Positions 4,537 through 55,326 of a DNA stretch of 64,000 bases are shown here, piece after piece. Origin of the DNA: Nocardiopsis ganjiahuensis DSM 45031 (GTDB lineage Bacteria; Actinomycetota; Actinomycetes; Streptosporangiales; Streptosporangiaceae); contig NZ_ANBA01000015.1 in NCBI RefSeq assembly GCF_000341085.1, positions 62,001-126,000 of the forward strand. Reading direction: 5' to 3'. Below the pieces are notes generated by a model. It did not search any database. It saw nothing but the letters and a program-made list of their open reading frames with translations, and was not told the origin of the DNA. How positions within the stretch are numbered: position 1 is the stretch's first letter; each line of letters opens with the position of its first letter. Position numbers and translations under genes: made by a program.

Positions 4537-4900
4537 TTGAAACTCTCCCCTTCGCCCTCTCAGCGGCCCGCATTCCGAGCGGAACCGACCTGAGTTCTGC
4601 TGCCGGACAATATCCGCTGGCCGAAAGTACACCTAACCAACGGACGGAGTTGTTATGAAGGCGAGAGCAGAGTGACACGGTGCCTTACCTGGAAGTTACC
4701 AACAGCACACCGGATCGGGGCAACCAACGGCCTATTGGCTGTTTTTGACCTCCCCTTCCCCTGAAAAACCGGCCCGTGCGACGGCGCGTGTCGTGACCTT
4801 CACCCAAGGTCACACGCCCACGTCGGACCCAACCGGTCTAGACCGGACTGACCCATTCGCGGCCGGTGCCCTCGGGCCACGGCGCCTCGTCGGGCCGAGC
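4537..4900. promoter_or_regulatory. Promoter region of the nucleoside importer operon
   Basis: This 364-bp gap separates the importer lipoprotein start (4536, minus strand) from the hydrolase stop (4901). No coding sequence is convincing here. It contains the CCGGTCTAGACCGG palindrome at 4833-4846. Local GC falls around 4600-4760, consistent with a promoter, but no clear -35/-10 pair can be assigned. Confidence 0.5.
4833..4846. promoter_or_regulatory. dre-like GntR/HutC operator palindrome
   Basis: CCGGTCTAGACCGG is a perfect 14-bp palindrome. Its ten-base core GGTCTAGACC is the core of the DasR/NagR operators (consensus around TGGTCTAGACCA) bound by HutC-type GntR regulators. A second copy of the same core lies upstream of deoC at 17154. 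Binding is inference. Confidence 0.6.
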
Positions 4901-5632
4901 TCATTCGTCGAGGAAGGCCACGACGGCTTCCTTGAAGACCCTGGAGGAGACGGCGTTGGCGTGGTCGCGGCCGGGGATCTCCACGTGCGATCCGCCGCAG
5001 CGTTCGGCGAGCTCCCGCGCACCCTCCGCGACGGTGTCCCTGGCTCCGGAGACCAGGAGCACCGGGATCCCCTCGGGACGCGGTTCCTCCTGGAAGGGGC
5101 GGGAGGCCTGCCCCCGGGCACAGGCGGCGAGGGCCGCGGCGTCGTTGCCCGGAAGCCCGGCGACGGTGCGGTAGACGTGGTCGAAGGGGCTGTCCCCCTC
5201 GCCGGGTCCGGTCGTGTCCAGGCCGGCCAGGGCGTCGGCCGGGCCGAACCCGCCCAGGACCAGGCGGCGCACCCGCTCGGGCGCGGTGAGCGCGAGCTCC
5301 CAGGCCAGCCGGGACCCCATGGAGTAGCCGACGGCGTCGACGCTCTCCAGGCCCAGCTCGTCGAGCATCGCCAGGAGGTCGGCGACGAAGTGTTCGGGCA
5401 GGTAGAGACCGCTGTCGGTGGGTTTGTCGCTGGCCCCGTGGCCGCGCAGGTCCGGGCCGATGACACGGCGTCCGGCGGTGTCGAGGACACGCGGCCATCC
5501 GGCGGCGCGCCAATTCATGTCGAAGCTGGTCCCGAAACCGTGCAGCAGAAGCACCGGTACGGAGTCGGCCGGGTTCTGGGAAGGCAAATCCGCATAGCGC
5601 ATTGTCACGTCTCCAGCGAGATTCGCAGTCAT
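4901..5632 (-). CDS. Alpha/beta hydrolase
   Basis: A 243-aa single-domain alpha/beta hydrolase. The oxyanion-hole motif HGFG is at 31-34, the nucleophile elbow Gly-Tyr-Ser-Met-Gly places the catalytic Ser at 104, and Asp199 (GARDT) and His224 (GRDHANAV) complete the triad. Length and the PDLRGHGAS motif fit small esterases or epoxide/lactone hydrolases. The substrate cannot be told. The ATG at 5632 follows GGAAGG. It is transcribed alone: a terminator-like hairpin separates it from the dehydrogenase operon upstream, and the importer promoter region lies downstream. Confidence 0.88.
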   Translation of the reverse strand: MTANLAGDVTMRYADLPSQNPADSVPVLLLHGFGTSFDMNWRAAGWPRVLDTAGRRVIGPDLRGHGASDKPTDSGLYLPEHFVADLLAMLDELGLESVDAVGYSMGSRLAWELALTAPERVRRLVLGGFGPADALAGLDTTGPGEGDSPFDHVYRTVAGLPGNDAAALAACARGQASRPFQEEPRPEGIPVLLVSGARDTVAEGARELAERCGGSHVEIPGRDHANAVSSRVFKEAVVAFLDE

Positions 5633-7173: not shown

Positions 7174-8207
7174 AGCTCGACCTCTTCCTGCCAGGTGCGG
7201 TGCTGCCGGGTCAGCTCGTCGGTGGTCTCCCGGAAGACGTGGGTGAACAGCTCCGAGCCGTCGGGCTCGGGGGCGGCGGCGACCCCGTCGCGGATCTCCT
7301 CGGCCCTTCTGGCGGCCTCGGCATCGACGTCGGCGAAGAACTCCTCGTCGGCGTGCCCGGCCTCGAGCATGGCGGCGCGCAGCAGGTCGATGGGGTCGCG
7401 CCGGCGCCAGCGGTCGGCGTCGGACTCGTCGCGGTAGCGGCCGGGGTCGTCGGAGGTGGAGTGGGGCTCGACGCGGTAGGTGAGGGCCTCGATGACGGTG
7501 GGGCCGCCGCCGTTGCGGGCGCGTTCGACCGCCTCGGCGGTGACCGTGTGGACGGCTCCGGCGTCGTTGCCGTCGACGAGGACGCCGGTCATGCCGTAGC
7601 CCTCGGCGCGCGCGGCGATGGAACCGCCCGCGACCTGGCGCTCGTTGGGCACCGACAGGGCCCACTGGTTGTTCTGGCAGAAGAAGATGACGGGTGCCGT
7701 GAAGACCCCGGCGAAGTTCATGGCCTCGTGTACGTCGCCCTCGGAGCTGGCGCCGTCGCCGAAGTAGGCCATGGCGACGCCGTCGTCACCGCGGAGGCGT
7801 TCGCCGAGCGCCCAGCCCACGGCGTGGGGGACGGGGCCGCCGACCACCGCGTTGATGGCGCCGAAGCGGGACTCCATGACGTCGTAGAGGCCGCCGTGCC
7901 ACAGGGCCCGGTGGGTGGCCATGTAGCCGACCATCTCGACGCCGTAGGCGAGGGCGGCGGCCATCTCACGGTAGGTGGGGAAGACGAAGTCGCGGGTGGG
8001 GTCGAGAGCGCTGGCGCTGCCGACCTGCGCGGCCTCCTGTCCCCGGACGGAGACGTAGGCGGGGAAGACGCCCTGGCGCTGGAGGGCGATGGCCTCGGTG
8101 TCCAGATCACGCGCGGTGCGCATGTCGCGGTAGAGGCCGCGGGTCAGTTCGGGTGTCAGGTGCTCCACGGTGATGGCGCCCTGACCCGTCGACTCTTGGG
8201 GTGGCAT
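7170..8207 (-). CDS. 2-oxo-acid dehydrogenase E1 component, alpha subunit
   Basis: A 345-aa ThDP-dependent E1 alpha subunit. The thiamine diphosphate motif runs from Gly-Asp-Gly (150-152) to Asn-Asn (179-180). HSTSDDPGRYR near residue 255 is the phosphorylation-loop region conserved in BCKDH/PDH E1 alpha. The ATG at 8207 has a GGAG nine bases upstream. It is the first gene of a three-gene operon (E1 alpha, E1 beta, lipoyl domain) transcribed away from the Lrp-type regulator at 8911. Branched-chain 2-oxo acids, the source of branched fatty-acid primers in actinomycetes, are the most likely substrates by context. Confidence 0.92.
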   Translation of the reverse strand: MPPQESTGQGAITVEHLTPELTRGLYRDMRTARDLDTEAIALQRQGVFPAYVSVRGQEAAQVGSASALDPTRDFVFPTYREMAAALAYGVEMVGYMATHRALWHGGLYDVMESRFGAINAVVGGPVPHAVGWALGERLRGDDGVAMAYFGDGASSEGDVHEAMNFAGVFTAPVIFFCQNNQWALSVPNERQVAGGSIAARAEGYGMTGVLVDGNDAGAVHTVTAEAVERARNGGGPTVIEALTYRVEPHSTSDDPGRYRDESDADRWRRRDPIDLLRAAMLEAGHADEEFFADVDAEAARRAEEIRDGVAAAPEPDGSELFTHVFRETTDELTRQHRTWQEEVEL

Positions 8208-8910
8208 GTCGAGCGGCTCCCAACGTGGCCCTGCGCGCGTGGTGGCGCGACCGGGGCTCGGGGGTGGTCACGGTATGCCTTGATTCTCCGGCTAACTGTA
8301 CATTTGCGCTAGATATGTCCGAACAGTCGATACATCAGCGAACGAAGACCCTGGTTTCGTTCCCATGTGTCCAGGTTCAGACACTCCACGCGAGGGAAAA
8401 CGACACACAGCGCCAAACATCACGAAACGCCATCAACACCCTCACTCCCGAAGGCCACCCGAGGGTTGGAGCCCGGACACGGAGAGTGCACACACGGGGC
8501 GCGGGGAGCACCTTCACCTGCCCCGTCACAGGAGTCGTTGTATGTCCTTACAGATACGACAAATACGCACGGAATGGACCCATGGGCAAGAATTTCTGGC
8601 TGATTCCGGACAGGAGGGTGTAGTTACCGGCCAGTCAGGGAAACCCTGGGCCCACCCCGCGCGTCAACCTGAGTACAGTCGGAACTCCTCCGCCACACCC
8701 CCGTCTGGCGGTTCGCACAAGAGGTCCGAGCGCACCAATCCCCCGATCCCCCACTCGACCCACCAGCATCCGCCGAACGTGCGCCCAGCATCTCGCCGAC
8801 TGAGATTTCGATGGACGAAAACAACGTTTACCTGGTATTTGCTTAGCTCCCTGTCAAAGATGACAGCGAGGAGCTGAGCACTGCGACAAGAGCACACGAG
8901 GAGCACGCAC
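8208..8910. promoter_or_regulatory. Divergent intergenic region between E1 operon and Lrp-type regulator
   Basis: About 700 bp with lower GC than the flanking genes and no convincing gene; open frames here have irregular codon use. Near 8290-8340 is an AT-richer stretch (for example CTGTACATTTGCGCTAG) that could hold the E1 promoter. Near 8820-8870 is another AT-richer stretch before the regulator. The length suggests several operator sites for the Lrp-type protein, but no clear repeat can be defined by eye. Confidence 0.5.
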
Positions 8911-9405
8911 ATGGCCATGGGCGACCAGCGCAGGAGCGGCCGGCGGCCGGACACGACCGACCAGACCATTCTGAGCGCGCTCGCCAAGGACGCTCGGACC
9001 GGCATCACGGAGATCGCCGCACTGGCCAACGTCTCCCGGGCCACGGCCTACAACCGGATCAAGCGGCTCACTGACGAGGGGGTCATCCGCGGCTACTCCG
9101 TGGTGACCGACCACTCCAAGATGGGGCTCGGCGTCACCGCGCTCGTCCTCATCTCCGGCAGCCAGCCCGACTGGCGGGCCAACCGGGAGATCCTCTCGTC
9201 CTACCCCGAGATCGAGTACTGCTGGTACGTGGTGGGGTCGGCGGACATCGTCCTGCTGGTCCGCGTCGCCAACACCAACCAGCTGCGTGACCTGATTCTG
9301 AGCCGTCTCCAGTCGCTCCCCGGCGTGACGTCCACCCAGACGCTCACCGTCATCGACGAGGTCGTACACCGACCGGTCGTGGAGCCCTCCGAGGGGAGCG
9401 AGTGA
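8911..9405 (+). CDS. Lrp/AsnC family transcriptional regulator
   Basis: A 164-aa protein with an N-terminal AsnC-type winged helix-turn-helix (about residues 15-65; DARTGITEIAALANVSRATA recognition region) and a C-terminal RAM/Lrp ligand-binding domain (70-150; IEYCWYVVGSADIVLLVRV). The ATG at 8911 is preceded by GAGGAG; a second ATG two codons later is possible. It is divergent from the E1 alpha/E1 beta operon. Lrp relatives commonly control branched-chain 2-oxo-acid dehydrogenases (BkdR-like), so it probably senses an amino acid or oxo acid and regulates that operon. The ligand is unknown. Confidence 0.9.
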   Translation: MAMGDQRRSGRRPDTTDQTILSALAKDARTGITEIAALANVSRATAYNRIKRLTDEGVIRGYSVVTDHSKMGLGVTALVLISGSQPDWRANREILSSYPEIEYCWYVVGSADIVLLVRVANTNQLRDLILSRLQSLPGVTSTQTLTVIDEVVHRPVVEPSEGSE

Positions 9406-9423
9406 CCTCGCCCCTCCCCCGGC

Positions 9424-11097
9424 TCAGCCCCTGACCACCTCGGCGACCGAGGCCATCAGTTCGGACAGCAGTTCCGATCCGCGCGCGCGGATGGCCGCGA
9501 CGTCGTCGTCCACCCCCAACACCACCTCGGCGTAGGCCTTGAGCTTGGGTTCGGTCCCCGAAGGGCGCAGCGTCACCCGCCCCCACACCCCGCCCCCCAG
9601 CTCGAAGCGCAGAGCGTCGGTCGGCGGCAGCCCCTCATGGCCGCCGGCGAAGTCGACGACCCCCGACACCTTCAGGGGGCCGAACGCGGCGGGCGGTTCG
9701 GCGCGCAACCGCCGCATCGCCGCGGAGATCTCCGACAGGTCCTCCACTCGGACCGACAGCTGGTCGCTCAGGTGCAGACCGTACCTGCGCGCCTGGTCGT
9801 CGAGGAGGTCGACCAGGGTGCGGCCCCGCGCCTTGGCCTCCGCGGCCAGGGACAGCGCCGTCAGCGCGGCACTGATCCCGTCCTTGTCGGCCACCGGTCG
9901 GTCCCGGTCACCGCCCACGCAGTACCCCAGCGCCTCCTCGTAGGAGAACACCCTGCGCTGCCCGGGGGCGCCCGCGCGGGCCAGCCACTTGAACCCGGTC
10001 AGGGTCTCCTCGTAGTGCACGCCCCGGTCCCGGGCGATCTTGCCGAGCAGGCTGGAGGAGACGATCGAGGTGGCCACCACCCGCTCGTCACCGCTCGTGT
10101 GGTCGAGCACGTACGCGGCGAGCAGGCCGCCGACCTCGTTCCCGGTGAGCAGGCCGTGCCCGGGAACGGCGAGCGCCAACCGGTCGGCGTCGGGGTCGTT
10201 GGCCACCACCAGGTCGGCCCCGTGCGCCTCCCCCGCCGCCAGGGCCAGGTCCATCGCCCCCGGCTCCTCCGGGTTCGGGAAGGCGACCGTGGGGAAGTCG
10301 GGGTCGGGCTCGAACTGCTCCGCCACGACCTCGGGCGACGCGAAACCGGCCTTCTCCACCGCGGCCAGCAGCACCCGGCCGCCCACCCCGTGCAGGGGTG
10401 TGTAGACCACCGACAGGTCACGGGGGCCCTCGGGCACCATCGCGGTCACCGCGTCCAGGTACCCGCTGACCGCCTCGGGCCCCAGCACCGCCCAGTCCTC
10501 GCCCAGCGGGAGCGCGCCGACCGGCCCCACCTCGTCGATGGCGGCGGAGATCTCGGTGTCCACCGGGGAGACGATCTGACTGCCCGCGTCGTCGCCGGAG
10601 CCGCCCACGTACACCTTGTAGCCGTTGTCCTGGGGCGGGTTGTGGCTGGCGGTGACCACGATCCCGGCGTCCGCGCCGAGCTCTCGCAGGGTGTACGCCA
10701 GGACGGGGGTGGGCAGCGGGCCGGGCAGCAGGGACACCCTGTGCCCGGCCCCGGTGAGCACGGCCGCGCTGTCCCGGGCGAAGTCGGCGGACCGGTGCCG
10801 GGCGTCGTAGCCGATGACCACGTGCTTGCCGCCCTCGCCGAGCCAGGCTCCGATCCCCGCCGCGGCGCGCATGACCACGACCCGGTTCATCCGGTTGGGC
10901 CCGGCGCCCAGGGCACCGCGCAGACCCGCCGTACCGAACTCCAGCCGGGCGGCGAAGCGGTCGGTGAGGTCGGCCAGGGCCGCCCCGTCACCGGCCTCGA
11001 CCCGGGCCAGCAGCGCACCCAGTTCTCCCCGGGTCGCGGGGTCCGGGTCCTGGTCGAGCCAGTCCCTGGCCTGGACGAGGAGGGCGGAGTCGAGCAT
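9424..11097 (-). CDS. Phospho-sugar mutase (PGM2/PmmB-like), probable phosphopentomutase
   Basis: A 557-aa alpha-D-phosphohexomutase, the length of the PGM2/PmmB subgroup. The phosphoserine loop TASHNPPQDNGY places the catalytic Ser at 151, the Mg site is DPDADR at 301-306, and the C-terminal phosphate loop RPSGTEPKLKAY is intact. The ATG at 11097 has GGAAAGGA upstream; the in-frame ATG at 11178 lacks support. Usually annotated phosphomannomutase, but it lies just downstream of purine nucleoside phosphorylase, as pmmB lies beside deoD in mycobacteria. Human PGM2 of the same subgroup is a phosphopentomutase. Interconversion of (deoxy)ribose-1-phosphate and -5-phosphate is therefore the likely role, by inference. 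Confidence 0.9.
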   Translation of the reverse strand: MLDSALLVQARDWLDQDPDPATRGELGALLARVEAGDGAALADLTDRFAARLEFGTAGLRGALGAGPNRMNRVVVMRAAAGIGAWLGEGGKHVVIGYDARHRSADFARDSAAVLTGAGHRVSLLPGPLPTPVLAYTLRELGADAGIVVTASHNPPQDNGYKVYVGGSGDDAGSQIVSPVDTEISAAIDEVGPVGALPLGEDWAVLGPEAVSGYLDAVTAMVPEGPRDLSVVYTPLHGVGGRVLLAAVEKAGFASPEVVAEQFEPDPDFPTVAFPNPEEPGAMDLALAAGEAHGADLVVANDPDADRLALAVPGHGLLTGNEVGGLLAAYVLDHTSGDERVVATSIVSSSLLGKIARDRGVHYEETLTGFKWLARAGAPGQRRVFSYEEALGYCVGGDRDRPVADKDGISAALTALSLAAEAKARGRTLVDLLDDQARRYGLHLSDQLSVRVEDLSEISAAMRRLRAEPPAAFGPLKVSGVVDFAGGHEGLPPTDALRFELGGGVWGRVTLRPSGTEPKLKAYAEVVLGVDDDVAAIRARGSELLSELMASVAEVVRG

Positions 11098-38185: not shown

Positions 38186-41047
38186 TCAGGACCCGAGCCC
38201 GGCCAAGCGCTCACGTACGGCGGTGACCCACCGCTCCTCGGCTCCCTCGGCCTCCGGGAGCAGTGCCAGTACCTCCTCCAGCTCCGCTCGCGCCTCACCA
38301 GGGGACAGCTCTTCCAGTTGGTGAGCAAGCGTAGCGATCCACTGCCGGGTCATCAGGGGTTCGGCGTGATCCGGACCGTACAACTCGCACTCATTCCGGT
38401 AGAGCTGACGATGAAGGCGGAGCGCTTCCTCCAGGTCACCCTGTTTCCGCGTGCTGAACGCGAGGCACCCCAGGGCGTCCAAGGTCTTCGGATCAATGGG
38501 CCCCAGCAGGTCGTCGAAGGCCGCGTGCACCAGGATCAGCTGTTCTGCGGCCTCCTCGAAGCGTTCCTGGTGTTGCAGAGCGTGGGCGAGACAGTGCCGG
38601 TCCTGAAGCACCTTGGTGTCGCACTCGTCATTCGTTTCCAGACGATCCGCCAGGACTTCTTGGAAGGTGTTCGAGGCGCTCAAATGGTGCCCGAACCGGG
38701 CCAGAAAGTCGCCGTAGTCGTGTCTGCGTCCCAGCCAACGCTCTCCGCTGGCCTCTCCTGTCTCCTCCATCAACTCCAGAAGGCGCCTGTACTGCTTGAG
38801 GCCCTCCTGTTTTTGCTGTTTCACCAGGTTGTCAGCGAGACACCTGAGCAGGTCCCCGTACTTCCTGCGGTTCTCCGCGATGGCGTGTTCGATCTCGAAC
38901 CTGGCAGCCCCCTCCCCGGAATTGAGAAGGGACGCCAGATGTGCCCTGCGGTCGTCCAGTTCCGAGAGCACAGCCCGGTAATCGTGCTCCGCTTCCTCGT
39001 AGCGTTCCAGATCATCCAGGCGGTGGGCAGTGTGGTGCCGACTCTCGATACTGAGCAGATCCCTGCTCTCAGGGAACTCCTGGATCAGCTCGTCGTAGTG
39101 CCCTTGGCTCTCTTCCTCCTTTCCCCTCCTCGACATCACGCCGATCAGAGCCCGCAGCGTGACTTCGGTGTACGAGCTCTCCACCCCGAGCACCCGCCGC
39201 CTCGCCTCAAGCACCGCCCGGAACTCGGCCTCGGTCTCCGCCGAGTCGTTGGGAAGAAGGAGCGCCAAGTCGTGACGCGCTGTGAGAGTCTCGGGATGCT
39301 CATCACCGAGGACCCGCCTCTGCGCGGCCACAACGACGGAGAGTTCCTCCAGCCGTTCCGGCCTGGGCAAAGAGGCGATCGCGTACCTGTGTCGGACGAC
39401 CAACCGTACGGCGTCTTCCTCCTGGAACTTCTCGCTTCGCCTCCGCATCAGGGCCACAAGGTCCTCGGCTCGGCCTCGCTGGGAACTGAACCAGAGGTAG
39501 GCGAAGGTGCTGACCCCCGTGTACAGAACCATGGAGAGCGTTCCGGCCGGGCGATCATCCACTCGGCGCATCGCACCGATCACGTGCGGTGCCAGCAGGC
39601 GCCACCAGCCCCAGTTCGCGGTGGACTCGGGCGGGTGTTCCGCCCCCTTGGCGAGCATCTCCACGGCGGCGCCCCACACCGCCTCGCGCTCCTTCCCATC
39701 CGACTCGCGCACCCGGTGGGCGTTCGCGTCCAGGACCAGACGGTGGGCCCGCAGGCAGGGCACCGGACCGGCGCCGGCGAAGACCTCGGGAAGCTCCACC
39801 ACCTCCACCAGTCCCAGGTCGACCAGCGCCTCCAGGGCCCGGTCCACCCGGTCCAGGTCCGGGGGTTCCGGCAGGAGCCCGTGCCGGGACGCCGCTGCCA
39901 CGTCCAGCAGGTCCACCGGGAAGGGTTCGGCGGAGAAGCACGAGAGCAGGCGCATCAGCGGCCGCGCCTCCACGGTCCCCTGTTCGTCGAGGAGGTCGAG
40001 GCTCAGTTCCCAGGTACGGCTGATCAGACGGCGGTGCAGGCGTTCGGCGGCCCCCGTGCCCGGCGGCAGGCCCTGGTCCAGCAGTTCCGGGCCGAGATCG
40101 CCCACCGCCTCCAGATACGCGTCGAAGGTGCGTGTCCGGTGGGGCCCGCCGCCCCGCTGACGCAGGAGTCCGGCGCCGCGCGCGGTCCGTGCCAGGTAGG
40201 AACCGGCCAGGCGCAGGGCCAGGGGCAGACCGCCGAGGCGTTCGGACAGGGCTCGGGCCTCCTCCTCGGTTCCGGCGTTGCCCGCGAGGTCGATGAGGAC
40301 GTCCGCACCGTCCTCGGCGGACAGTTCGCGGACCGGGTGCAGGCGGGGCCCTTCGCCCCACGCCTCGGCGGTGCCCACACGGGTGGTGACCACGGTCAGT
40401 CCGGTCTCGCCGGCCCGGACCCATCCCGTCCCGTCGCACGCCGTGTGCCCGGCCTCGGCAAGCCGGTCGGGACTGTCCGCGTTGTCGAACACCAGCAGCC
40501 AGGGCCGTTCCGCGGCCTCCAGGCGCCCCCACAGCAGATCGGTGGCGCTGGCACCGCCCGCCCAGGCCTCGGCGACCTGCTCCTCGTCGGCGCCGAGCTC
40601 CAGCGCGACCTCCCGCAGGGCGGTCACCATGCGGTCGGGCTCGTCGGCCGACACCCAGAACACCGTGTAGCCGAGCGCACGGGCGTCCCGGGCCAGCCTC
40701 AGCGCGAGTGTGGTCTTGCCGCAGCCGCCGAGTCCGTGCAGAACCTCCACCTGGCCCCCAGGCGCGGCCAGGGCCTCACCCAGCAGTGCCAGGAGCCCGT
40801 CGCGGCCGCGTACCCGGGCGGGGAGCTCGCCGAGCGGCGGGCGGATCGAGTGCAGGCCGGGGCCGGCGGGGGCCGCGTCCGAGCCCGTACCCTCACCCGC
40901 GTCCGCGTCCTTTCGCCTCCAGGCCCGTTCCGCCTGTTCGCGCACACCCGTGTGGTCCGCCCCGTCCACCGCTTCGCGGAGGCGCTCGGCCAGGCGGCGG
41001 ACCTCCTCGGGAGCGTCCGGGTCGACGGGGTCCTGGGGGCGTGCCAT
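38186..41047 (-). CDS. STAND NTPase (NB-ARC-like) with C-terminal helical repeats
   Basis: A 953-aa cytoplasmic signalling ATPase. After a charged N-terminal helix region (1-75) the NB-ARC module has Walker A GLGGCGKTT (105-113), Walker B LLVFDNAD, an Arg-containing sensor in VVTTRVG and the GLPLAL motif of the winged-helix junction. Residues 560-950 are TPR-like helical repeats (for example LAHALQHQERFEEAAEQL, QGDLEEALRLHRQLY), which usually sense ligands. There is no recognised N-terminal effector. The 3' third is less GC-rich than neighbouring genes, a hint of acquisition. It is divergent from a small ORF and a kinase. It is probably a regulator or defence/conflict protein; the trigger is unknown. 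Confidence 0.88.
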   Translation of the reverse strand: MARPQDPVDPDAPEEVRRLAERLREAVDGADHTGVREQAERAWRRKDADAGEGTGSDAAPAGPGLHSIRPPLGELPARVRGRDGLLALLGEALAAPGGQVEVLHGLGGCGKTTLALRLARDARALGYTVFWVSADEPDRMVTALREVALELGADEEQVAEAWAGGASATDLLWGRLEAAERPWLLVFDNADSPDRLAEAGHTACDGTGWVRAGETGLTVVTTRVGTAEAWGEGPRLHPVRELSAEDGADVLIDLAGNAGTEEEARALSERLGGLPLALRLAGSYLARTARGAGLLRQRGGGPHRTRTFDAYLEAVGDLGPELLDQGLPPGTGAAERLHRRLISRTWELSLDLLDEQGTVEARPLMRLLSCFSAEPFPVDLLDVAAASRHGLLPEPPDLDRVDRALEALVDLGLVEVVELPEVFAGAGPVPCLRAHRLVLDANAHRVRESDGKEREAVWGAAVEMLAKGAEHPPESTANWGWWRLLAPHVIGAMRRVDDRPAGTLSMVLYTGVSTFAYLWFSSQRGRAEDLVALMRRRSEKFQEEDAVRLVVRHRYAIASLPRPERLEELSVVVAAQRRVLGDEHPETLTARHDLALLLPNDSAETEAEFRAVLEARRRVLGVESSYTEVTLRALIGVMSRRGKEEESQGHYDELIQEFPESRDLLSIESRHHTAHRLDDLERYEEAEHDYRAVLSELDDRRAHLASLLNSGEGAARFEIEHAIAENRRKYGDLLRCLADNLVKQQKQEGLKQYRRLLELMEETGEASGERWLGRRHDYGDFLARFGHHLSASNTFQEVLADRLETNDECDTKVLQDRHCLAHALQHQERFEEAAEQLILVHAAFDDLLGPIDPKTLDALGCLAFSTRKQGDLEEALRLHRQLYRNECELYGPDHAEPLMTRQWIATLAHQLEELSPGEARAELEEVLALLPEAEGAEERWVTAVRERLAGLGS

Positions 41048-41290
41048 ACCGGTCCTGCCTTCCTGCCGCGGGGGCCTGCGGGGGTTCGAGGGCTGCGGCG
41101 ACCGGGGCGGCCGGGGCGCACCGCGCTGCCGAACTACTCGCATTGTTCAGCGAACAACCGGCTCACGGCGGGTTGTTCGCGCCTTGTTCGTGGCCGCTTC
41201 CGGACAACCGGCGCCCTCCGTATCCATGGGATCACCGCACAGACGGTGCGGTTCCGCCGAATCGGCGGAGATCCCCGGAGGTCCCACCCC

Positions 41291-41482
41291 ATGGACACGC
41301 TCGCCCAGATCGTCACCGAACACGGACCCTCGGCCCCGCTCCTCCTGCGCGGACTCCGGATCACGCCCCGGGACGCCCGGGACTCCCGGAAGGCCGAGGA
41401 GGCCCGGGATCTGCTGCGTTCCCGGCCGGTCGAGGAGAGCCGACGGCGGGGGTGCGCGACGACTCCTTCACTGCAAGGATGA
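41291..41482 (+). CDS. Possible small protein upstream of the kinase
   Basis: A 63-aa open frame with a GGAGG ribosome binding site ahead of ATG 41291 and normal GC-rich third positions for the first 50 codons. The last 12 codons look less typical. It has one predicted helix and no known motif. It is divergent from the STAND NTPase and 43 bp before the kinase start, so it may be part of the kinase transcript. The assignment rests only on codon use and the ribosome binding site. Confidence 0.4.
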   Translation: MDTLAQIVTEHGPSAPLLLRGLRITPRDARDSRKAEEARDLLRSRPVEESRRRGCATTPSLQG

Positions 41483-41525
41483 CCTCACCCCAGCACCCCC
41501 TCTAGCCACACGAGGTCCCATCGCA

Positions 41526-42485
41526 GTGCCTCCCACCACCCCCTCTCCCCGTTCCACACCCGGCGGCGACCGGACCGGGGGCGCGACCGTCACGCCCCTG
41601 GGGGCGCACGACCCTGTCCGGCTGGGGCCGCACCGGTTACTCGGGCGGCTGGGATCCGGGGGGATGGGCACCGTCTACCTGGGCCGCTCCAGGTTCGGGC
41701 GGCTGGTCGCGGTCAAGGCCGTGCACCCGGAACTGGCCGACGAACCGGAGTTCCGGGCCCGCTTCGCACGTGAGGTGGGGGCGCTGCGGCGGGTCCGCAG
41801 CCCCTTCGTGCCGCGCTTCGTCGGAGCCGATCCCCGGGCACGGTCCCCTTGGCTGGCCACCGGTTTCGTGCCCGGTCCGACCCTGCGGGAGCGGGTCGAG
41901 AGCGCCGGTCCGCTGCTCGGCGGCACCCTGACCGGGTTGGCCGCGGGGGTGGCCTCGGCTCTGGCCGACATCCACGACGCCGGGGTCGTGCACCGCGACC
42001 TCAAGCCGAGCAACGTCATCCTCTCGCCGGAAGGCCCCCGGATCCTGGACTTCGGCATCGCCCGCACGGCCGACGCCACCGCACGGACCCCGAACGGCGG
42101 CGTCCGCACGTCGGGCAGCGCCTCCCGCACCGGGGCGGGCGAGGTGATGGGCACCCCCGGCTGGATCGCCCCCGAACGCCTCCACGGCGCCCCGGCGACC
42201 ACCGCCTCGGACGTCTTCAGCTGGGGACAGCTGACCGCCTACGCCGCCACCGGCCGCAACCCCTTCGGCCGCGGGAACTCCGAGGCGGTCAACCAGCGGG
42301 TGCTGCGCGGTGAGGCCAACCTGGCAGGGCTCCCCGAGGAGCTGCTCACCCCGGTCCGCGCCGCGCTGACCGAACCGCCCGAGCACCGGCCCGGCCCGGC
42401 TCAGATCCTCCGTGTGCTGGGGAGGGGCCGGAGGATGTCGGACACCCGCGGGGTGGCCAGCCGGATCGTGCACGACGAGTGGTAG
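41526..42485 (+). CDS. Serine/threonine protein kinase, catalytic domain only
   Basis: A 319-aa Hanks-type kinase. The Gly loop GSGGMGTVYLG, catalytic Lys in LVAVKAVHPE, HRDLKPSNVI, DFGIAR and IAPERL are all present. The protein stops after the C-lobe: no transmembrane helix, PASTA or other sensor domain follows, and about 30 Pro/Ser-rich residues precede it. The GTG at 41526 is the best start, although its GAGG site is somewhat distant. It is cytoplasmic, and its location opposite the STAND NTPase suggests that the two act in one signalling pathway. Substrates are unknown. Confidence 0.85.
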   Translation: MPPTTPSPRSTPGGDRTGGATVTPLGAHDPVRLGPHRLLGRLGSGGMGTVYLGRSRFGRLVAVKAVHPELADEPEFRARFAREVGALRRVRSPFVPRFVGADPRARSPWLATGFVPGPTLRERVESAGPLLGGTLTGLAAGVASALADIHDAGVVHRDLKPSNVILSPEGPRILDFGIARTADATARTPNGGVRTSGSASRTGAGEVMGTPGWIAPERLHGAPATTASDVFSWGQLTAYAATGRNPFGRGNSEAVNQRVLRGEANLAGLPEELLTPVRAALTEPPEHRPGPAQILRVLGRGRRMSDTRGVASRIVHDEW

Positions 42486-42547: not shown

Positions 42548-43090
42548 TCAGGCGAACAGCTCCACGAGGTCGTCCATGACGACGACGAGGACACCTGCGA
42601 CCAGCCCCGTCACCACGGTGAGAAGCACACCCGCCAGTTCGGCGGGCCCCGGAGCCCCCGCAGGCAGCGCGGCCAGTCCACCGGCCACGGCGACCACACC
42701 CAGTGCGGCGTTGCGTACCACGTGGCGCGAGGAGTACACCGCCCCGGAACGTCCGAAACAGTGGCAGCGCGCCGACGACCCGCGCCGCAGGGAAGCGAGG
42801 ATCACCGCCGTGAACACGGCCAGCAGGGCGAACGATCCGCCGAAGGCGATCCACCCCGCCGGTCCGATCCCCAGGGCATAACCCGCGAAGGCCGCGACCA
42901 CGGCGGCCTCCCCCGCGGCGGCCGCCCACGCCGCTGCGCTCAGCAGCCGGGTCGGCACCAGCCCCAGGGGTTCCAGGGAGGCTGCGAAGCCGCGGTGGTC
43001 ACGGACCTTGCCGAACGCGGAGACGGCGAAGACCGTCGCGAGCAGGGCCGCAGCCCCCGGCACCAGGTAGTCCCACAGCATCGTTGTCAT
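42548..43090 (-). CDS. MauE/DoxX-like membrane protein of the peptide cluster
   Basis: A 180-aa membrane protein with four to five helices and the MauE-type start (FAVSAFGKVRDHRGFAASL). A conserved Cys-His-Cys-Phe-Gly (109-113) lies at a helix boundary. MauE proteins work with MauD-type thioredoxins, like DsbD/CcdA, to move electrons for disulfide formation outside the membrane. The ATG at 43090 overlaps the S26 protease stop (ATGA); ATG 43081 has the better ribosome binding site distance and is an alternative. It is the last gene of the operon that follows the cysteine-rich peptide, so it probably supports oxidation of that peptide. Confidence 0.85.
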   Translation of the reverse strand: MTTMLWDYLVPGAAALLATVFAVSAFGKVRDHRGFAASLEPLGLVPTRLLSAAAWAAAAGEAAVVAAFAGYALGIGPAGWIAFGGSFALLAVFTAVILASLRRGSSARCHCFGRSGAVYSSRHVVRNAALGVVAVAGGLAALPAGAPGPAELAGVLLTVVTGLVAGVLVVVMDDLVELFA

Positions 43091-43554
43091 CCCTCCAGGC
43101 GGCGCAGCACGGTTCCGACGACCCGGCCGACCGGTACCAGACCGAACCTGCGCGAGTCGGTGCTGTGGTCGGAGTTGTCGCCCAGGACCGCCACGAACCC
43201 ATCCGGTACGGTCCTGGGCCCGCTCCCCCGGCCACCGGGGACGCCCTCGGGCACCGGGTCACCGGCCACCGCGGCCACTCGCTTGACGAGGTAGTTGGGG
43301 CGGCGCCGGTCGCGTTCGTCACGGAGCACGGGGGTCTCCGGATCGCGCAGGACCACGAGTTGGCGGGGGACGATCACCGTGCGCCGGTTGGCCCGTTCGG
43401 CGAGCATCCGGTCCCCCTGGCGCAGCGCGGGCAGCATGCTCACACCGGAGACCTCCGTGACGAAGACCCTGCGCCGGACCCACAGGAGCACGGCCAGGAC
43501 CGCGGTCACCGCCACGGCGGCCGACGATCCCAGTACGACGAGCGCGGTCAGCAC
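43087..43554 (-). CDS. S26 (signal peptidase I-like) protease of the peptide cluster
   Basis: A 155-aa membrane-anchored serine protease. One N-terminal transmembrane helix (about 5-25) is followed by box B with the nucleophile Ser39 in VSGVSMLP, box D with the general base Lys91 in NYLVKRVAAVAGDPV, and box E GDNSDHSTDSRRFG. It is shorter than housekeeping LepB enzymes. Its stop overlaps MauE and its start overlaps the ABC transporter by seven bases, so it is dedicated to this operon. The neighbouring exporter lacks a C39 peptidase domain, so this enzyme is the obvious candidate for removing the precursor leader outside the cell. Confidence 0.88.
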   Translation of the reverse strand: MLTALVVLGSSAAVAVTAVLAVLLWVRRRVFVTEVSGVSMLPALRQGDRMLAERANRRTVIVPRQLVVLRDPETPVLRDERDRRRPNYLVKRVAAVAGDPVPEGVPGGRGSGPRTVPDGFVAVLGDNSDHSTDSRRFGLVPVGRVVGTVLRRLEG

Positions 43555-45386
43555 GGTGCCCCCTCGTCCTGGCGGTACCCCTGCGCCTGGATGGAGAACA
43601 GCCGGGCGTACACCCCGTCCGCGGCCATCAGCTCCCCGTGCGTTCCCGACTCGGTGACCGTCCCCTCGTCGAGCACCACGATCCGGTCCGCGTCGCGCAG
43701 AGCACCGAGCCGGTGGGAGACCAGCAGGCTGGTGCGGCCCCGGCGCCGTTCCCTGAGCCGTGTGTGCAACTCGTGCTCCGCCTCCGCGTCCAGCCCGGCG
43801 CTGGGCTCGTCGAGGATGAGCAGGTCACGTTCCTCCCGGAGCAGGGCGCGGGCGATCGCGACCCGCTGCTGCTGGCCGCCGGAGAGGTCGACGCCCTGTG
43901 CGTTCTCCTCCCCCTGGAAGAAGATCCGGGTGATGAGCGTGTCGTAGCCGCTTGGGAGCGCGGCGATCGCATCGTGGACACCCGCGCGGTGAGCGGCGGT
44001 CTCGATGGCCGCGCGGTCCTCGAAACGGCTCAGGTCGCCCAGCCCGATGTTCTCGGCGGCGGTCATGTCATAGGTCATGAAGTCCTGGAACACCGCGCCG
44101 ATCCGCTCGCGCAGGGCTTCGGGGGCCACCTGGCGGATATCGGTCCCGTCCCAGGTGATGGTGCCGTGATCGGGGTCGTAGAACCGGCACAGCAGCTTGG
44201 CCAGGGTGCTCTTGCCCGACCCGTTGAGCCCGACCAGGCCCAGCGCCGTCCCCGCGGGGATGTCCAGGTCGACCCCCTTCAGGACCCAGGGGTGGTCGGG
44301 GGTGTAGCGGAACCACACGTCGCGCAGCTCGATACGGCCGGTCAGCGGGGCGACCCGTGCCGTTCCGGTGGGCAGGTCCGGTTCGATCGCGACGATGGAG
44401 CGGTAGTGCGTGAACAGCAGCAGTCGCTGGTGGGCCTGGGCCAGGAGTGAGATCATCCCGGCCATCCCCTGCTGCACCGCGCCGACCGCGGCGATGTACA
44501 GGGCGACGTCGCCGACGGCCCCCCGGCCCTGGCCCGCCTGGAAGATCACCCACACGAGCCCCCCGCCGGAGATCAGTGCGGCCAGCAGCCCGGCGGCGAC
44601 CTGGACGAGCATGTCGCGCCGGTCCATGAGTCGGGTCTCCGTGTTGGCCGTGCGGCGCTCGGCCAGCATGCGTCGGCGGAGCATGTCGCCGAGGCCGAAG
44701 AGGCGGATCTCCTTCGCCGCCTCCGCGCTCGACATCAGGTCGCGGTAGAAGAGCTCCCTGCGCTCGACCGGGCCGAGCTGCCAGACCATGGCCGCCCGTC
44801 GGCGCGACAGCTCCAGCTGTCCCCACAGCGGTGGCAGGGTTCCGAGCAGGACGACCACGGCCAGCAGCGGGTGGATCACCACGAGGGAGGTCACGAAGCC
44901 GAGGACCGTCACGAGTCCGCCCAGCAGACCGAGAACGGCCTGGAGGACCTGGGCCGGGGTCTGGCCGCCGCTGTCGGCCGCCAACCGCAGGCGGTCGAGG
45001 AAGGCCGGGTTCTCGAACCGGCCGAGCCCGGAGAGCCGGTTGACCGACGTGAACAGGTGGTCGTCCGCGTGCAGGCCGACCCTGCGGGCCAACTCGTCCT
45101 CCGCGTACGTCTGCACCGCGGTGGTCACGGCGGTCAGGAGTCCGAGGGTGGCCAGCAGGACGGCTACCACCAGCACTGTCGCCATCACGGCGTCGACGGC
45201 CAGGTCGTTGAGGACCGTGCGCATGAGCCAGGCGGTGGCGACCGGTACCGCACCCGCGGTGACGGCCAGGAGGGCCAGCCCGAGCGCCCACCAGCGGCCC
45301 GCCTGCCACACGAGCCGGACCGCGGGAAGCAGGCCGGCGACGACGTGGCGACCGCCGAGTCGGGGGGTGTTTTCCGTCGTGTCCAT
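43548..45386 (-). CDS. ABC exporter (fused TMD-NBD) of the peptide cluster
   Basis: A 612-aa half-transporter with six transmembrane helices in residues 20-320 and one NBD: Walker A GLNGSGKST, signature LSGGQQQR, Walker B LLILDEPSAGLD, H-loop LLVSHRLG. There is no N-terminal C39 peptidase domain. The architecture resembles the LanT/McjD-type exporters of small peptides and would act as a homodimer. ATG 45386 lies 3 bp after the thioredoxin-like stop. Its context between a secreted thioredoxin, a signal-peptidase-like protease and a cysteine-rich precursor makes peptide export the likely role. Confidence 0.92.
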   Translation of the reverse strand: MDTTENTPRLGGRHVVAGLLPAVRLVWQAGRWWALGLALLAVTAGAVPVATAWLMRTVLNDLAVDAVMATVLVVAVLLATLGLLTAVTTAVQTYAEDELARRVGLHADDHLFTSVNRLSGLGRFENPAFLDRLRLAADSGGQTPAQVLQAVLGLLGGLVTVLGFVTSLVVIHPLLAVVVLLGTLPPLWGQLELSRRRAAMVWQLGPVERRELFYRDLMSSAEAAKEIRLFGLGDMLRRRMLAERRTANTETRLMDRRDMLVQVAAGLLAALISGGGLVWVIFQAGQGRGAVGDVALYIAAVGAVQQGMAGMISLLAQAHQRLLLFTHYRSIVAIEPDLPTGTARVAPLTGRIELRDVWFRYTPDHPWVLKGVDLDIPAGTALGLVGLNGSGKSTLAKLLCRFYDPDHGTITWDGTDIRQVAPEALRERIGAVFQDFMTYDMTAAENIGLGDLSRFEDRAAIETAAHRAGVHDAIAALPSGYDTLITRIFFQGEENAQGVDLSGGQQQRVAIARALLREERDLLILDEPSAGLDAEAEHELHTRLRERRRGRTSLLVSHRLGALRDADRIVVLDEGTVTESGTHGELMAADGVYARLFSIQAQGYRQDEGAPC

Positions 45387-45389
45387 GGC

Positions 45390-45944
45390 TCAGCGGACCG
45401 CCGTACCGAGCTCGGCTCCACCGGTCTCGGGCACGAAGACGCTGGTCGCCGTCGCGACGCCGTTCACGAGCGTGACGAAGGCCGGGGTCCCCTGGATGTC
45501 GAGGAGCCGGGGGATCTCACCGCCCCAGGGCTCGACCACCACCGGCACCGCCGGCTCCAGGAGTTCGACCATCTCCGCCTCCGCCCCGCCCTCCTCGATC
45601 ACCACGGCGAGCACACGCGCGTCCGGATGCCGTGCCGTGTGGTCGAGCAGGAGGGGGAGGCGTTCCCGGCACGGTGAGCAGTCCGGGGAGAGGACCGCCA
45701 TCAGGAGGGGCTCCGCGGTCTCCTCGAACGACAGTTCCACGCCCCGGGTGGACCGGGCCCGGAACGCCCCGACCCTGGTGCCGACGGACACCGCGGGGGC
45801 GGAGACGTCGTCGCCGACCGCCTTCGGCCTGTTCGCCAGGAGCTCGGTGTGCTGCCGCAGCCTGCGGACCACCCCCACCGCCAACAGGAGGTTCAGCAGG
45901 CCGAGTGCTCCTGTCAGGACTATCGCGACGACCATGAAAAACAC
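45390..45944 (-). CDS. Membrane-anchored MauD/TlpA-like thioredoxin of the peptide cluster
   Basis: A 184-aa protein with an N-terminal membrane anchor (residues 2-27), a polar linker and a thioredoxin-fold domain facing outside. The redox centre Cys-Ser-Pro-Cys is at 89-92 (LSPDCSPCRER) and the cis-Pro loop is GTPAFV. The GTG at 45944 is preferred: it follows GAGAGG at six bases, whereas TTG 45965 upstream lacks a good site. It matches MauD, the partner of MauE, and MauE lies in the same operon. Together they would form or correct the disulfide bonds of the exported six-cysteine peptide. Confidence 0.85.
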   Translation of the reverse strand: MFFMVVAIVLTGALGLLNLLLAVGVVRRLRQHTELLANRPKAVGDDVSAPAVSVGTRVGAFRARSTRGVELSFEETAEPLLMAVLSPDCSPCRERLPLLLDHTARHPDARVLAVVIEEGGAEAEMVELLEPAVPVVVEPWGGEIPRLLDIQGTPAFVTLVNGVATATSVFVPETGGAELGTAVR

Positions 45945-45973
45945 GACGTACCTCTCGTTCCACAACGAATTCG

Positions 45974-46003
45974 GTGGGGGCGGAGCACGTGCTCCGCCCC
46001 CAC
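45974..46003 (-). terminator. Perfect 30-bp palindrome between precursor gene and biosynthetic operon
   Basis: GTGGGGGCGGAGCAC (45974-45988) is followed directly by its exact complement (45989-46003). It lies 28 bp past the precursor stop and 30 bp before the thioredoxin start. Without a T-tract it probably acts as an attenuator or 3' stabiliser that keeps precursor mRNA in excess. Confidence 0.75.
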
Positions 46004-46030
46004 GTCCTCACCTCGGATCAGGTGCTCTGA

Positions 46031-46234
46031 CTAGCAGGTGCCGCAGGACAGTTCGCGGATCTGAGTTCCGCTGCTGCAGTTCCGCGACTGGTACTGGACC
46101 TTGTTGGTCCAGAAGAGTCCGCACCTGTTGCAGTGCGAGTTTTTCCACCCGGTGCAGGAAGCGGCTTCGACCCGCACCTGCGGGACAACGGACTGGATCA
46201 TTCGGTCGCTCAGCGACGTGATCAGACTGATCAT
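46031..46234 (-). CDS. Precursor of a secreted six-cysteine peptide (RiPP/bacteriocin-like)
   Basis: A 67-aa peptide. The leader (about residues 1-24, ISLITSLSDRMIQSVVPQV then RVEA) is amphipathic and not a Sec signal. The core holds cysteines at 27, 35, 38, 53, 64 and 67, with two CxxC pairs (CNRC, CGTC), four aromatic residues and a net positive charge. A Val22-x-Ala24 site fits cleavage by an S26 protease, giving a mature peptide of about 43 aa. The ATG at 46234 follows AAGGGA at seven bases. Genes for export, proteolysis and disulfide formation follow on the same strand, and a SARP gene is divergent. No family is recognised. Confidence 0.8.
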   Translation of the reverse strand: MISLITSLSDRMIQSVVPQVRVEAASCTGWKNSHCNRCGLFWTNKVQYQSRNCSSGTQIRELSCGTC

Positions 46235-46555: not shown

Positions 46556-47380
46556 ATGGACTTCAGAATGCTCGGACCACTCGAAGTCACGGACGACTCA
46601 GGGGAGCCTGTTCCCGTCAACCGCAAAAAACACCGCCAACTCCTGGCCACCCTCCTGGTACGGGCGAACAGCGTGGTGCCCTTCGGCCGGATGGTTGACA
46701 ACATCTGGGGCGACGTCCCCCCGCGCTCGGCACGCGGGAACGTCAAGACGTACGTCTCCCAGCTGCGTCAGCGGATCGACCGGATCGAGACCGGAGGCGA
46801 CGGCTACCGCATCCGGGTCGGGGAGCACGAACTGGACTCCTGTGTCTTCGACGCCTTGCTGCGACGGGGCCTGCGACAGTTCACGGAGGGGCACCTGACC
46901 GAGGCGGCACAGATCCTCGAGGAGGCACTCGACCTGTGGCGCGGTGACGTCCTCCAGGGCACGTCCCTGTACAACGACCTGGCGCTCGCCCACACGCACC
47001 TGGACGAGCAGCGCTTCACCTGTTTCAAACACCTGATGGACGTACGGCTGGCCCAGGGCCGGCACTCGGAGGTCCTCGCCCGCCTGCGCCCGGTGATGGG
47101 CTCCCACCTGCTGCACGAACAGCTGTGCGGACTGCAGATGATGGCCCTGTACCGCGACGGTCGCTGCGCCGAGGCACTCGTCTCCTACGAGGACATGCGC
47201 GCACGCCTGGCCGGGGAGCTGGGTGTGGATCCCAGCCCGGAACTGCAGCAACTGCACCTGCGGATCCTGGCCCACGACCCGAAGCTGTCCGGTCCCTCTG
47301 TCCGGCTCCCCGTGCCGCAGGAGAGCCCGGGCCTCCCGTCACGGATACCGCTGACCCATCTGTCAGGTCAGTACACCTAG
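46556..47380 (+). CDS. SARP family transcriptional activator
   Basis: A 274-aa regulator with an OmpR-like winged helix (residues 1-92; RKKHRQLLATLLVRANSVV through NVKTYVSQLRQRID) and a bacterial transcriptional activation domain of helical repeats (95-245). There is no NB-ARC extension, so it is a short SARP like ActII-ORF4. The start is ATG 46556; the ribosome binding site is weak. SARPs switch on neighbouring specialised-metabolite clusters, and this one is divergent from the cysteine-rich peptide gene. It is very probably the pathway-specific activator. No TTA codon is obvious in the frame. Confidence 0.9.
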   Translation: MDFRMLGPLEVTDDSGEPVPVNRKKHRQLLATLLVRANSVVPFGRMVDNIWGDVPPRSARGNVKTYVSQLRQRIDRIETGGDGYRIRVGEHELDSCVFDALLRRGLRQFTEGHLTEAAQILEEALDLWRGDVLQGTSLYNDLALAHTHLDEQRFTCFKHLMDVRLAQGRHSEVLARLRPVMGSHLLHEQLCGLQMMALYRDGRCAEALVSYEDMRARLAGELGVDPSPELQQLHLRILAHDPKLSGPSVRLPVPQESPGLPSRIPLTHLSGQYT

Positions 47381-54746: not shown

Positions 54747-54819
54747 GCGGACGTGGCTCAGCTGGTAGAGCATCACCTTGCCAAGGTGAGGGTCGCGGGT
54801 TCGAATCCCGTCGTCCGCT
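54747..54819 (+). tRNA. tRNA-Gly (anticodon GCC), copy 1
   Basis: A 73-nt cloverleaf with acceptor GCGGACG/CGTCCGC, anticodon stem-loop CACCT-TGCCAA-GGTG reading GCC, T-arm GCGGG-TTCGAAT-CCCGT and discriminator T. Confidence 0.96.
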
Positions 54820-54890
54820 CGAGCGATTCGCATAGTGCCGCTTCAGGTGGCACAATCGGATCGGATCGGGGAGAGCATCCCGGATCACAC

Positions 54891-54963
54891 GCGGACGTGG
54901 CTCAGCTGGTAGAGCATCACCTTGCCAAGGTGAGGGTCGCGGGTTCGAATCCCGTCGTCCGCT
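54891..54963 (+). tRNA. tRNA-Gly (anticodon GCC), copy 2
   Basis: Identical to copy 1 over all 73 nt. Confidence 0.96.
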
Positions 54964-55034
54964 CGAGCGATTCGCATAGTGCCGCTTCAGGTGGCACAAT
55001 CGGATCGGATCGGGGAGAGCATCCCGGATCACAC

Positions 55035-55107
55035 GCGGACGTGGCTCAGCTGGTAGAGCATCACCTTGCCAAGGTGAGGGTCGCGGGTTCGAATCCCGTC
55101 GTCCGCT
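55035..55107 (+). tRNA. tRNA-Gly (anticodon GCC), copy 3
   Basis: Identical to copies 1 and 2 over all 73 nt. Confidence 0.96.
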
Positions 55108-55156
55108 CGGAGAAAGGCACGCGTGGGTGCCGCTCGGTTCCCCCGTGCTTCTGCAA

Positions 55157-55228
55157 GCCGGAGTGGCCGAGTGGTTGAGGCAAGGGACTGCAAATCCCTG
55201 CACACGGGTTCGATTCCCGTCTCCGGCT
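55157..55228 (+). tRNA. tRNA-Cys (anticodon GCA)
   Basis: A 72-nt cloverleaf with acceptor GCCGGAG/CTCCGGC, anticodon stem GGGA/TCCC with GCA in the loop, T-arm ACGGG-TTCGATT-CCCGT and discriminator T. Confidence 0.95.
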
Positions 55229-55251
55229 CCACGGGCACCACATTTCCATAA

Positions 55252-55325
55252 GGGCGATTAGCTCAGTTGGCTAGAGCACTACCTCGACACGGTAGGGGTC
55301 ACAGGTTCGAGTCCTGTATCGCCCA
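55252..55325 (+). tRNA. tRNA-Val (anticodon GAC), integration target
   Basis: A 74-nt cloverleaf with acceptor GGGCGAT/ATCGCCC, anticodon stem CTACC/GGTAG with loop TCGACAC, T-arm ACAGG-TTCGAGT-CCTGT. Its last 36 nt plus one base recur at 59279, marking an integrated element. Confidence 0.96.
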
Positions 55326-55326
55326 C
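55290..55326. repeat. att direct repeat, left (3' half of tRNA-Val)
   Basis: A 37-bp sequence from the anticodon stem to the tRNA end, identical to 59279-59315. Confidence 0.92.

What the first reader, a model, noticed from the sequence alone, without database searches (positions are those of the whole stretch)
46031..46234. Precursor with non-Sec leader and a predicted S26 cleavage site
The leader MISLITSLSDRMIQSVVPQV lacks a Sec-type hydrophobic core but ends with Val-Glu-Ala, which satisfies the -3/-1 rule of signal peptidases. A dedicated S26 protease is in the operon. This suggests ABC export with extracytoplasmic cleavage by a type I signal peptidase relative instead of C39 or LanP proteases.
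Basis: partly seen in the sequence, partly recalled or inferred. Interest (0 to 1): 0.7.

Follow-up and report, generated by a model that had tools for sequence, protein, structure and literature searches.

The report
Cysteine-rich peptide with nickel-SOD-like leader
A Nocardiopsis-type actinomycete carries an operon, found in about seventy diverged actinobacterial versions, that makes small peptides whose cysteines all appear to be paired in bridges and whose unusual leader and dedicated protease resemble those that mature nickel superoxide dismutase; apart from a 2020 list of candidate families that probably overlaps with it, it seems undescribed.

Summary
The 67-aa precursor (46031-46234, minus strand) has a 24-aa non-Sec leader ending V-E-A and a six-cysteine core.

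The precursor belongs to a recurrent actinobacterial cassette: precursor, TlpA/MauD-like thioredoxin, MauE, ABC exporter without C39, and S26 peptidase. I found 76 cassette loci; about 71 contain such a precursor.
(1) All 76 cores have an even number of cysteines, so full pairing is likely.
(2) The leader (LxDRMLxxxVPxxxAxA|) resembles the Ni-SOD (SodN) leader at its known cleavage site. The cassette S26 groups with SodX rather than housekeeping signal peptidase I, although the genus sample lacks SodN.
(3) Membrane-flanking charges of S26, the thioredoxin protein and MauE are opposite to housekeeping SPase I. They predict catalytic parts on the cytoplasmic face, against the proposed extracytoplasmic cleavage.

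Best reading: S26 cleavage in a SodX-like manner, disulfides by TlpA/MauE, then ABC export. Site and protease are well supported; cellular side, product and activity are unproven. decRiPPter (2020) probably overlaps; the S26/SodN-leader link appears new.

The parts
46163..46234 (-). leader-coding part of the precursor gene (24 aa, MISLITSLSDRMIQSVVPQVRVEA); predicted cleavage after A24
   Evidence: alignment of 17 relatives; leader statistics; SodN leader comparison
46031..46162 (-). core-coding part and stop: predicted mature peptide ASCTGWKNSHCNRCGLFWTNKVQYQSRNCSSGTQIRELSCGTC, six cysteines
   Evidence: even cysteine number in 76/76 relatives
45974..46003 (-). 13-bp perfect hairpin between the precursor gene and the rest of the operon; probably sets precursor level above that of the other genes
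   Evidence: -41.7 kcal/mol for the 73-nt stretch, z -5.2; strong hairpins follow 33 of 51 precursor genes versus 6% of random windows
45390..45965 (-). TlpA/MauD-like membrane-anchored thioredoxin-fold protein, CxxC motif DCSPC (true start may be the GTG at 45944, after a GAGAGG site)
   Evidence: relatives match AhpC-TSA/Redoxin and weakly MauD; the window copy itself has no family hit; CxxC in 70 of 71
43548..45386 (-). ABC exporter (transmembrane plus ATPase), no C39 peptidase domain
   Evidence: conserved in the cassettes
43087..43554 (-). S26 peptidase with one N-terminal transmembrane helix, Ser/Lys dyad, SPase I fold, grouping with SodX
42548..43090 (-). MauE (PF07291), CxCFG motif, predicted thiol-oxidising partner of the TlpA-like protein
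   Evidence: 73.2 bits, cut-off 27
46556..47380 (+). divergent SARP-type (BTAD) regulator, probable cluster regulator
   Evidence: present beside several related cassettes

Best explanation
The gene encodes the precursor of a secreted, fully disulfide-bonded 43-residue peptide. The 24-residue amphipathic leader addresses it to a membrane-bound processing complex. The operon's S26 Ser/Lys peptidase, which resembles SodX, cuts after the A/V-x-A motif (V22-E23-A24). The TlpA/MauD-like protein and MauE oxidise the cysteines to three disulfides, and the ABC exporter without C39 secretes the peptide. Membrane-flanking charges and the SodX/SodN parallel suggest that cleavage takes place at the cytoplasmic face, before or during export. 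Shown by sequence: the cassette, leader conservation, even cysteine number, S26 fold (predicted) and grouping. Inferred: cleavage itself, disulfide formation, order of steps, side of the membrane and biological activity.
For: 17 of 17 homologues carry [AV]-x-A before the first Cys. 76 cassette loci were found; 44 had a precursor by pattern and about 27 more by a position matrix. All 76 cores have an even Cys number in 49 of 49 clusters, against 61% of control short ORFs. S26 has an invariant Ser and Lys and an SPase I fold (pLDDT 91.9, VIA Z 13.3 to SpsB). Cassette S26 form a clade (98/98) placed beside SodX (98/78) and separated from 17 SPase I. Anchored at A|HC, 9 of 13 SodN leaders score in the top 0.03% of 80,000 windows with the cassette leader matrix. 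SodN is absent from the window genome and from the 36 congeneric genomes searched, so this S26 is not a Ni-SOD maturase. Charge bias is opposite to SPase I and the MauE CxCFG loop is strongly positive.
Against: No experiment exists for any cassette product that I could find. The positive-inside rule is only a prediction. Disulfides in bacteria normally form outside the cytoplasm, which fits export before oxidation and extracytoplasmic cleavage. TlpA/MauE might do another thiol reaction. The leader counts come partly from motif-based searches (only the 17-sequence set is free of that). The S26 tree has few columns (123), and the closeness to SodX depends on rooting with SPase I. A minimal version in Actinomadura (L070, L093) shows no TlpA/MauE match near the S26 gene.
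Confidence: 0.55

Rival explanations
1. One reading: the ABC exporter secretes the whole precursor with its leader, and S26 cuts it outside, as type I signal peptidases do; disulfides also form outside.
For: S26 has the SPase I fold and a membrane anchor; A-x-A sites are typical of SPase I; oxidative folding outside the membrane is usual in bacteria; TlpA-type proteins usually face outward (general knowledge; L172 in the same genome has an N-terminal RRRR lipoprotein signal).
Against: Flanking charges of S26 and the TlpA-like protein are opposite to those of 17 housekeeping SPase I, and the MauE motif loop is strongly positive. S26 groups with SodX, which in the loci read here has no transmembrane helix. 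The leader has no hydrophobic core to span the membrane.
Confidence: 0.33
2. The leader is an atypical Sec or Tat signal, and the housekeeping signal peptidase (contig C18 copy) cleaves it.
For: A-x-A at the cleavage site.
Against: No hydrophobic core in any of 77 leaders, no twin-arginine motif, dedicated ABC exporter and S26 in nearly all cassettes.
Confidence: 0.04
3. The cysteines are not paired as disulfides: the core binds a metal or carries thioethers, and TlpA/MauE serve another thiol chemistry.
For: Leader resemblance to a nickel enzyme; no direct proof of disulfides.
Against: Only even cysteine numbers; no lanthionine or radical-SAM enzyme among the window operon's genes; MauE and MauD are linked to disulfide formation in methylamine dehydrogenase (PMC7794033).
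Confidence: 0.08

Closest known systems
Ni-superoxide dismutase precursor SodN and its maturation protease SodX
   Same: Leader with hydrophobic patch, Pro about seven residues before the cut, [AV]-x-A at the cut and a cysteine-containing mature start; related S26 enzyme
   Different: SodN is an enzyme and not a small peptide; SodX has no membrane helix in the loci read; cassette S26 scores 43 bits against the 63-bit SodX cut-off; no SodN in this genome; the cassette leader has an extra LxDRM part
decRiPPter candidate families with mauE and mauD (PMC7794033)
   Same: mauE, one family also mauD, and cysteine-rich precursors in Streptomyces, including S. viridosporus (compare L115)
   Different: That text has no mention of signal peptidase or of S26, of leader conservation or of SodX; at least 8 cysteines reported there, 6 here; identity with this family is likely but could not be checked
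Linear polyphosphorylated peptides, LPP (PMC13381572)
   Same: RiPP leader removed by a signal-peptidase-like enzyme; MsbA-like transporter
   Different: Bacillota, archaeal-type SipW-like enzyme, depends on an RRE and a kinase, leader motif YxxPxVLxHQ; none of these in this operon
Housekeeping signal peptidase I (S26A)
   Same: Fold, Ser/Lys dyad, A-x-A preference
   Different: Opposite flanking charges, separate clade, non-Sec substrate
Methylamine dehydrogenase accessory proteins MauD/MauE
   Same: MauE family and a weak MauD match of a relative
   Different: No match to another mau gene in the operon; the substrate is a small peptide

Membership tests
Signal peptidase I (S26) | Peptidase_S26 match, Ser/Lys dyad and SPase I fold | tested here: met
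Signal peptidase I (S26) | N-in, catalytic domain outside (positive charges before the transmembrane helix) | tested here: not met
   K/R 0.3-0.75 before and 2.7 after in 67 cassette enzymes; 3.2 and 0.06 in 17 SPase I; prediction only
Signal peptidase I (S26) | Groups with housekeeping SPase I in a tree | tested here: not met
   SPase I separate (100/92)
SodX (TIGR02754) | Reaches the curated score | tested here: not met
   43.2 bits against 63.25
SodX (TIGR02754) | Linked to sodN | tested here: not met
   no PF09055 match in the window genome or 36 congeneric genomes
SodX (TIGR02754) | Groups with SodX on the tree and handles a SodN-like leader | tested here: met
   (98/78); leader similarity only, cleavage not tested
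RiPP-type peptide system | Conserved leader, hypervariable core, local processing and export genes | tested here: met
RiPP-type peptide system | Enzymatic modification of the core | not testable with these tools
   disulfide formation inferred from even cysteine counts and TlpA/MauE; no product known
C39 / double-glycine exporters | C39 domain on the ABC protein and GG/GA/GS site | tested here: not met
   no C39 hit; no conserved double-Gly in 77 leaders
LPP RiPPs | RRE and HprK-like kinase in the operon | tested here: not met
   operon 42548-46234 is filled by five other genes

The most novel reading that the evidence does not exclude
A widespread actinobacterial peptide class that uses the leader and protease logic of nickel superoxide dismutase: a membrane-tethered SodX-like enzyme cuts the leader on the cytoplasmic face, and a TlpA/MauE relay oxidises the cysteines at the same face before ABC export.
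Probability: 0.4. Interest if true: 0.82.

Novelty: new variant of a known kind. Interest (0 to 1): 0.7.

Why it matters
It would define a large, searchable class of fully disulfide-bonded bacterial peptides with very diverse cores, add a new type of leader protease to peptide natural-product biosynthesis, and connect it to Ni-SOD maturation, whose leader recognition is poorly understood. If oxidation and cleavage occur at the cytoplasmic face, it would also challenge the usual assumption that such peptides are matured outside the cell.

Tried and rejected
Precursor against Pfam and NCBIfam: no family. Phylum-wide precursor profile search found nothing outside the own genome, because only 14 candidates per genome are scored and the cores are too variable; solved by anchoring on S26. 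The alignment of precursors could not be used directly for a contig scan. The Lentzea core CVPENGQCCKKGYRFNCNGICSSKSSSCK looked knottin-like but matches no solved structure by sequence. Lantibiotic and double-glycine readings were rejected for lack of the enzymes and sites. Literature searches for a described S26/MauE/TlpA peptide system found only decRiPPter and LPP. The original SodX paper (PMC524918) was not held; SodX function is taken from PMC3919588 and PMC8346466. Five cassette loci without a detected precursor are partly cut by contig ends.

Full report
Observation. The ORF at 46031-46234 (minus strand) is real: 67 codons, ATG, good ribosome-binding site, ending in six cysteines. The leader is charged and amphipathic rather than Sec-like, and V22-E23-A24 stands three residues before the first cysteine, C27.

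Setting. On the same strand follow, closely packed, a TlpA/MauD-like protein with CxxC, an ABC exporter without C39, an S26 peptidase and MauE (PF07291); a SARP regulator is divergent. A 13-bp perfect hairpin separates the precursor gene from the rest. Strong hairpins follow 33 of 51 precursor genes in related loci, against 6% of random windows and 19% after other cassette genes; this looks like a device for making more precursor than enzymes (inference).

Relatives. The precursor has close relatives in 5 of 40 congeneric genomes (the window's own counted) and distant ones across the family. The genus is Nocardiopsis by a contig match: G035 contig 9 and NZ_JASFDV010000009.1 have the same length and the same precursor. 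In 17 aligned homologues found by BLAST score, without use of the motif, [AV]-x-A precedes the first cysteine in all. A scan with the S26 alignment fetched 80 loci from Streptomyces, Nonomuraea, Micromonospora, Catellatospora, Lentzea, Actinomadura, Nocardia and others. Of all loci held, 76 are cassettes by the rule ABC plus TlpA and/or MauE (a few are near-duplicates of the same locus); 44 have a precursor by pattern and about 27 more by a position matrix. Gene order varies, which argues that the genes belong together functionally. The consensus leader is L[AG]DR[ML]LxxxVPxxxAxA|, with the first cysteine within a few residues of the cut in nearly all. The window genome has a second, diverged cassette (L029).

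Cysteines. In 76 distinct cores (49 clusters) the cysteine number is always even: 4, 6, 8, 10 or 12. Other short ORFs with four or more cysteines in the same loci are even in 61%. This is strong indirect evidence that every cysteine is paired, and it fits TlpA/MauE as a thiol-oxidising pair. MauE has been linked to disulfide formation in methylamine dehydrogenase (PMC7794033).

Protease. Ser38 and Lys90 are invariant in 34 enzymes, and the predicted structure (pLDDT 91.9) is the SPase I fold (SpsB Z 13.3, E. coli LepB Z 11-13). In a tree of 86 S26 proteins the cassette enzymes form one group (98/98) next to SodX (98/78), and the 17 housekeeping enzymes lie apart (100/92). Few columns are available, and the neighbour relation depends on rooting with SPase I. 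The SodN leaders, aligned at their known A|HC cut, fit the cassette leader matrix very well (9 of 13 in the top 0.03%). The N-terminal part differs: SodN has no LxDRM part. The window genome and the 36 congeneric genomes searched have no SodN, so this enzyme has another substrate, most simply the precursor next to it.

Side of the membrane. S26 and the TlpA-like protein each have one N-terminal helix with almost no K/R before it and 2.7-2.8 after it; housekeeping SPase I has the reverse. The MauE CxCFG loop carries about +4 net charge. By the positive-inside rule all three active parts face the cytoplasm. I therefore give cytoplasmic-face cleavage a modest lead only.

Known work. decRiPPter (PMC7794033) listed three Streptomyces candidate families with mauE, one with mauD, and cysteine-rich precursors, as part of 42 candidates; overlap is likely (S. 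viridosporus also appears here as L115), but that text does not mention a signal peptidase or S26. LPP peptides (PMC13381572) are described by their authors as the first RiPP pathway with a signal-peptidase-I-like enzyme, in Bacillota and with an RRE. I found no description of the present class in the held literature, which does not include most subscription journals.

Verdict. A real, widespread and mostly undescribed peptide system. Leader cleavage by S26 at A/V-x-A: likely (about 0.85, inference). All cysteines paired: likely (about 0.85, inference). Cytoplasmic-face cleavage: slightly favoured (about 0.55-0.6). Biological activity: unknown; a secreted antimicrobial or signalling peptide is the default guess.

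Noticed in passing
L029 (own genome contig C7:33500-49500), precursor ORF near 7966-8240, MauE 8271, TlpA 8853, ABC 9029, S26 11041: The same genome holds a second, diverged cassette with an eight-cysteine precursor (MKAAPLLRLADRILERFIPRAEAQAAAAPCGYQYRC...), also followed by a strong hairpin.
   Followed up: partly
L070 about 7923-10922; L093; L107: Actinomadura loci carry a precursor with a four-cysteine core (CWWTSTGMHCCIYAGHTYC) with S26 (and ABC in L070 and L093) but no TlpA or MauE match in the stretch held; probably a minimal version.
   Followed up: partly
L124, L126, L142, L145, near 4900-5100: Lentzea and Actinosynnema precursors have nearly identical, knottin-like cores (CVPEHGQCCKKGYRFNCNGICSSKSSSCK) behind the same leader; no match among solved structures by sequence.
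   Followed up: partly
45974-46003: Perfect 13-bp hairpin between precursor gene and TlpA gene; unrelated but equally strong hairpins occur after most precursor genes in relatives.
   Followed up: yes
54747-55326: Tandem array of three tRNA-Gly(GCC) genes at a 144-base spacing followed by tRNA-Cys and tRNA-Val; the mechanical ORF list reads spurious repeated proteins there.
   Followed up: no
38186-41143: 985-aa protein with an NTPase-like N-terminal half and a TPR-like C-terminal half by eye, downstream of the cassette on the same strand but separated by a convergent kinase-like gene (40710-42485).
   Followed up: no
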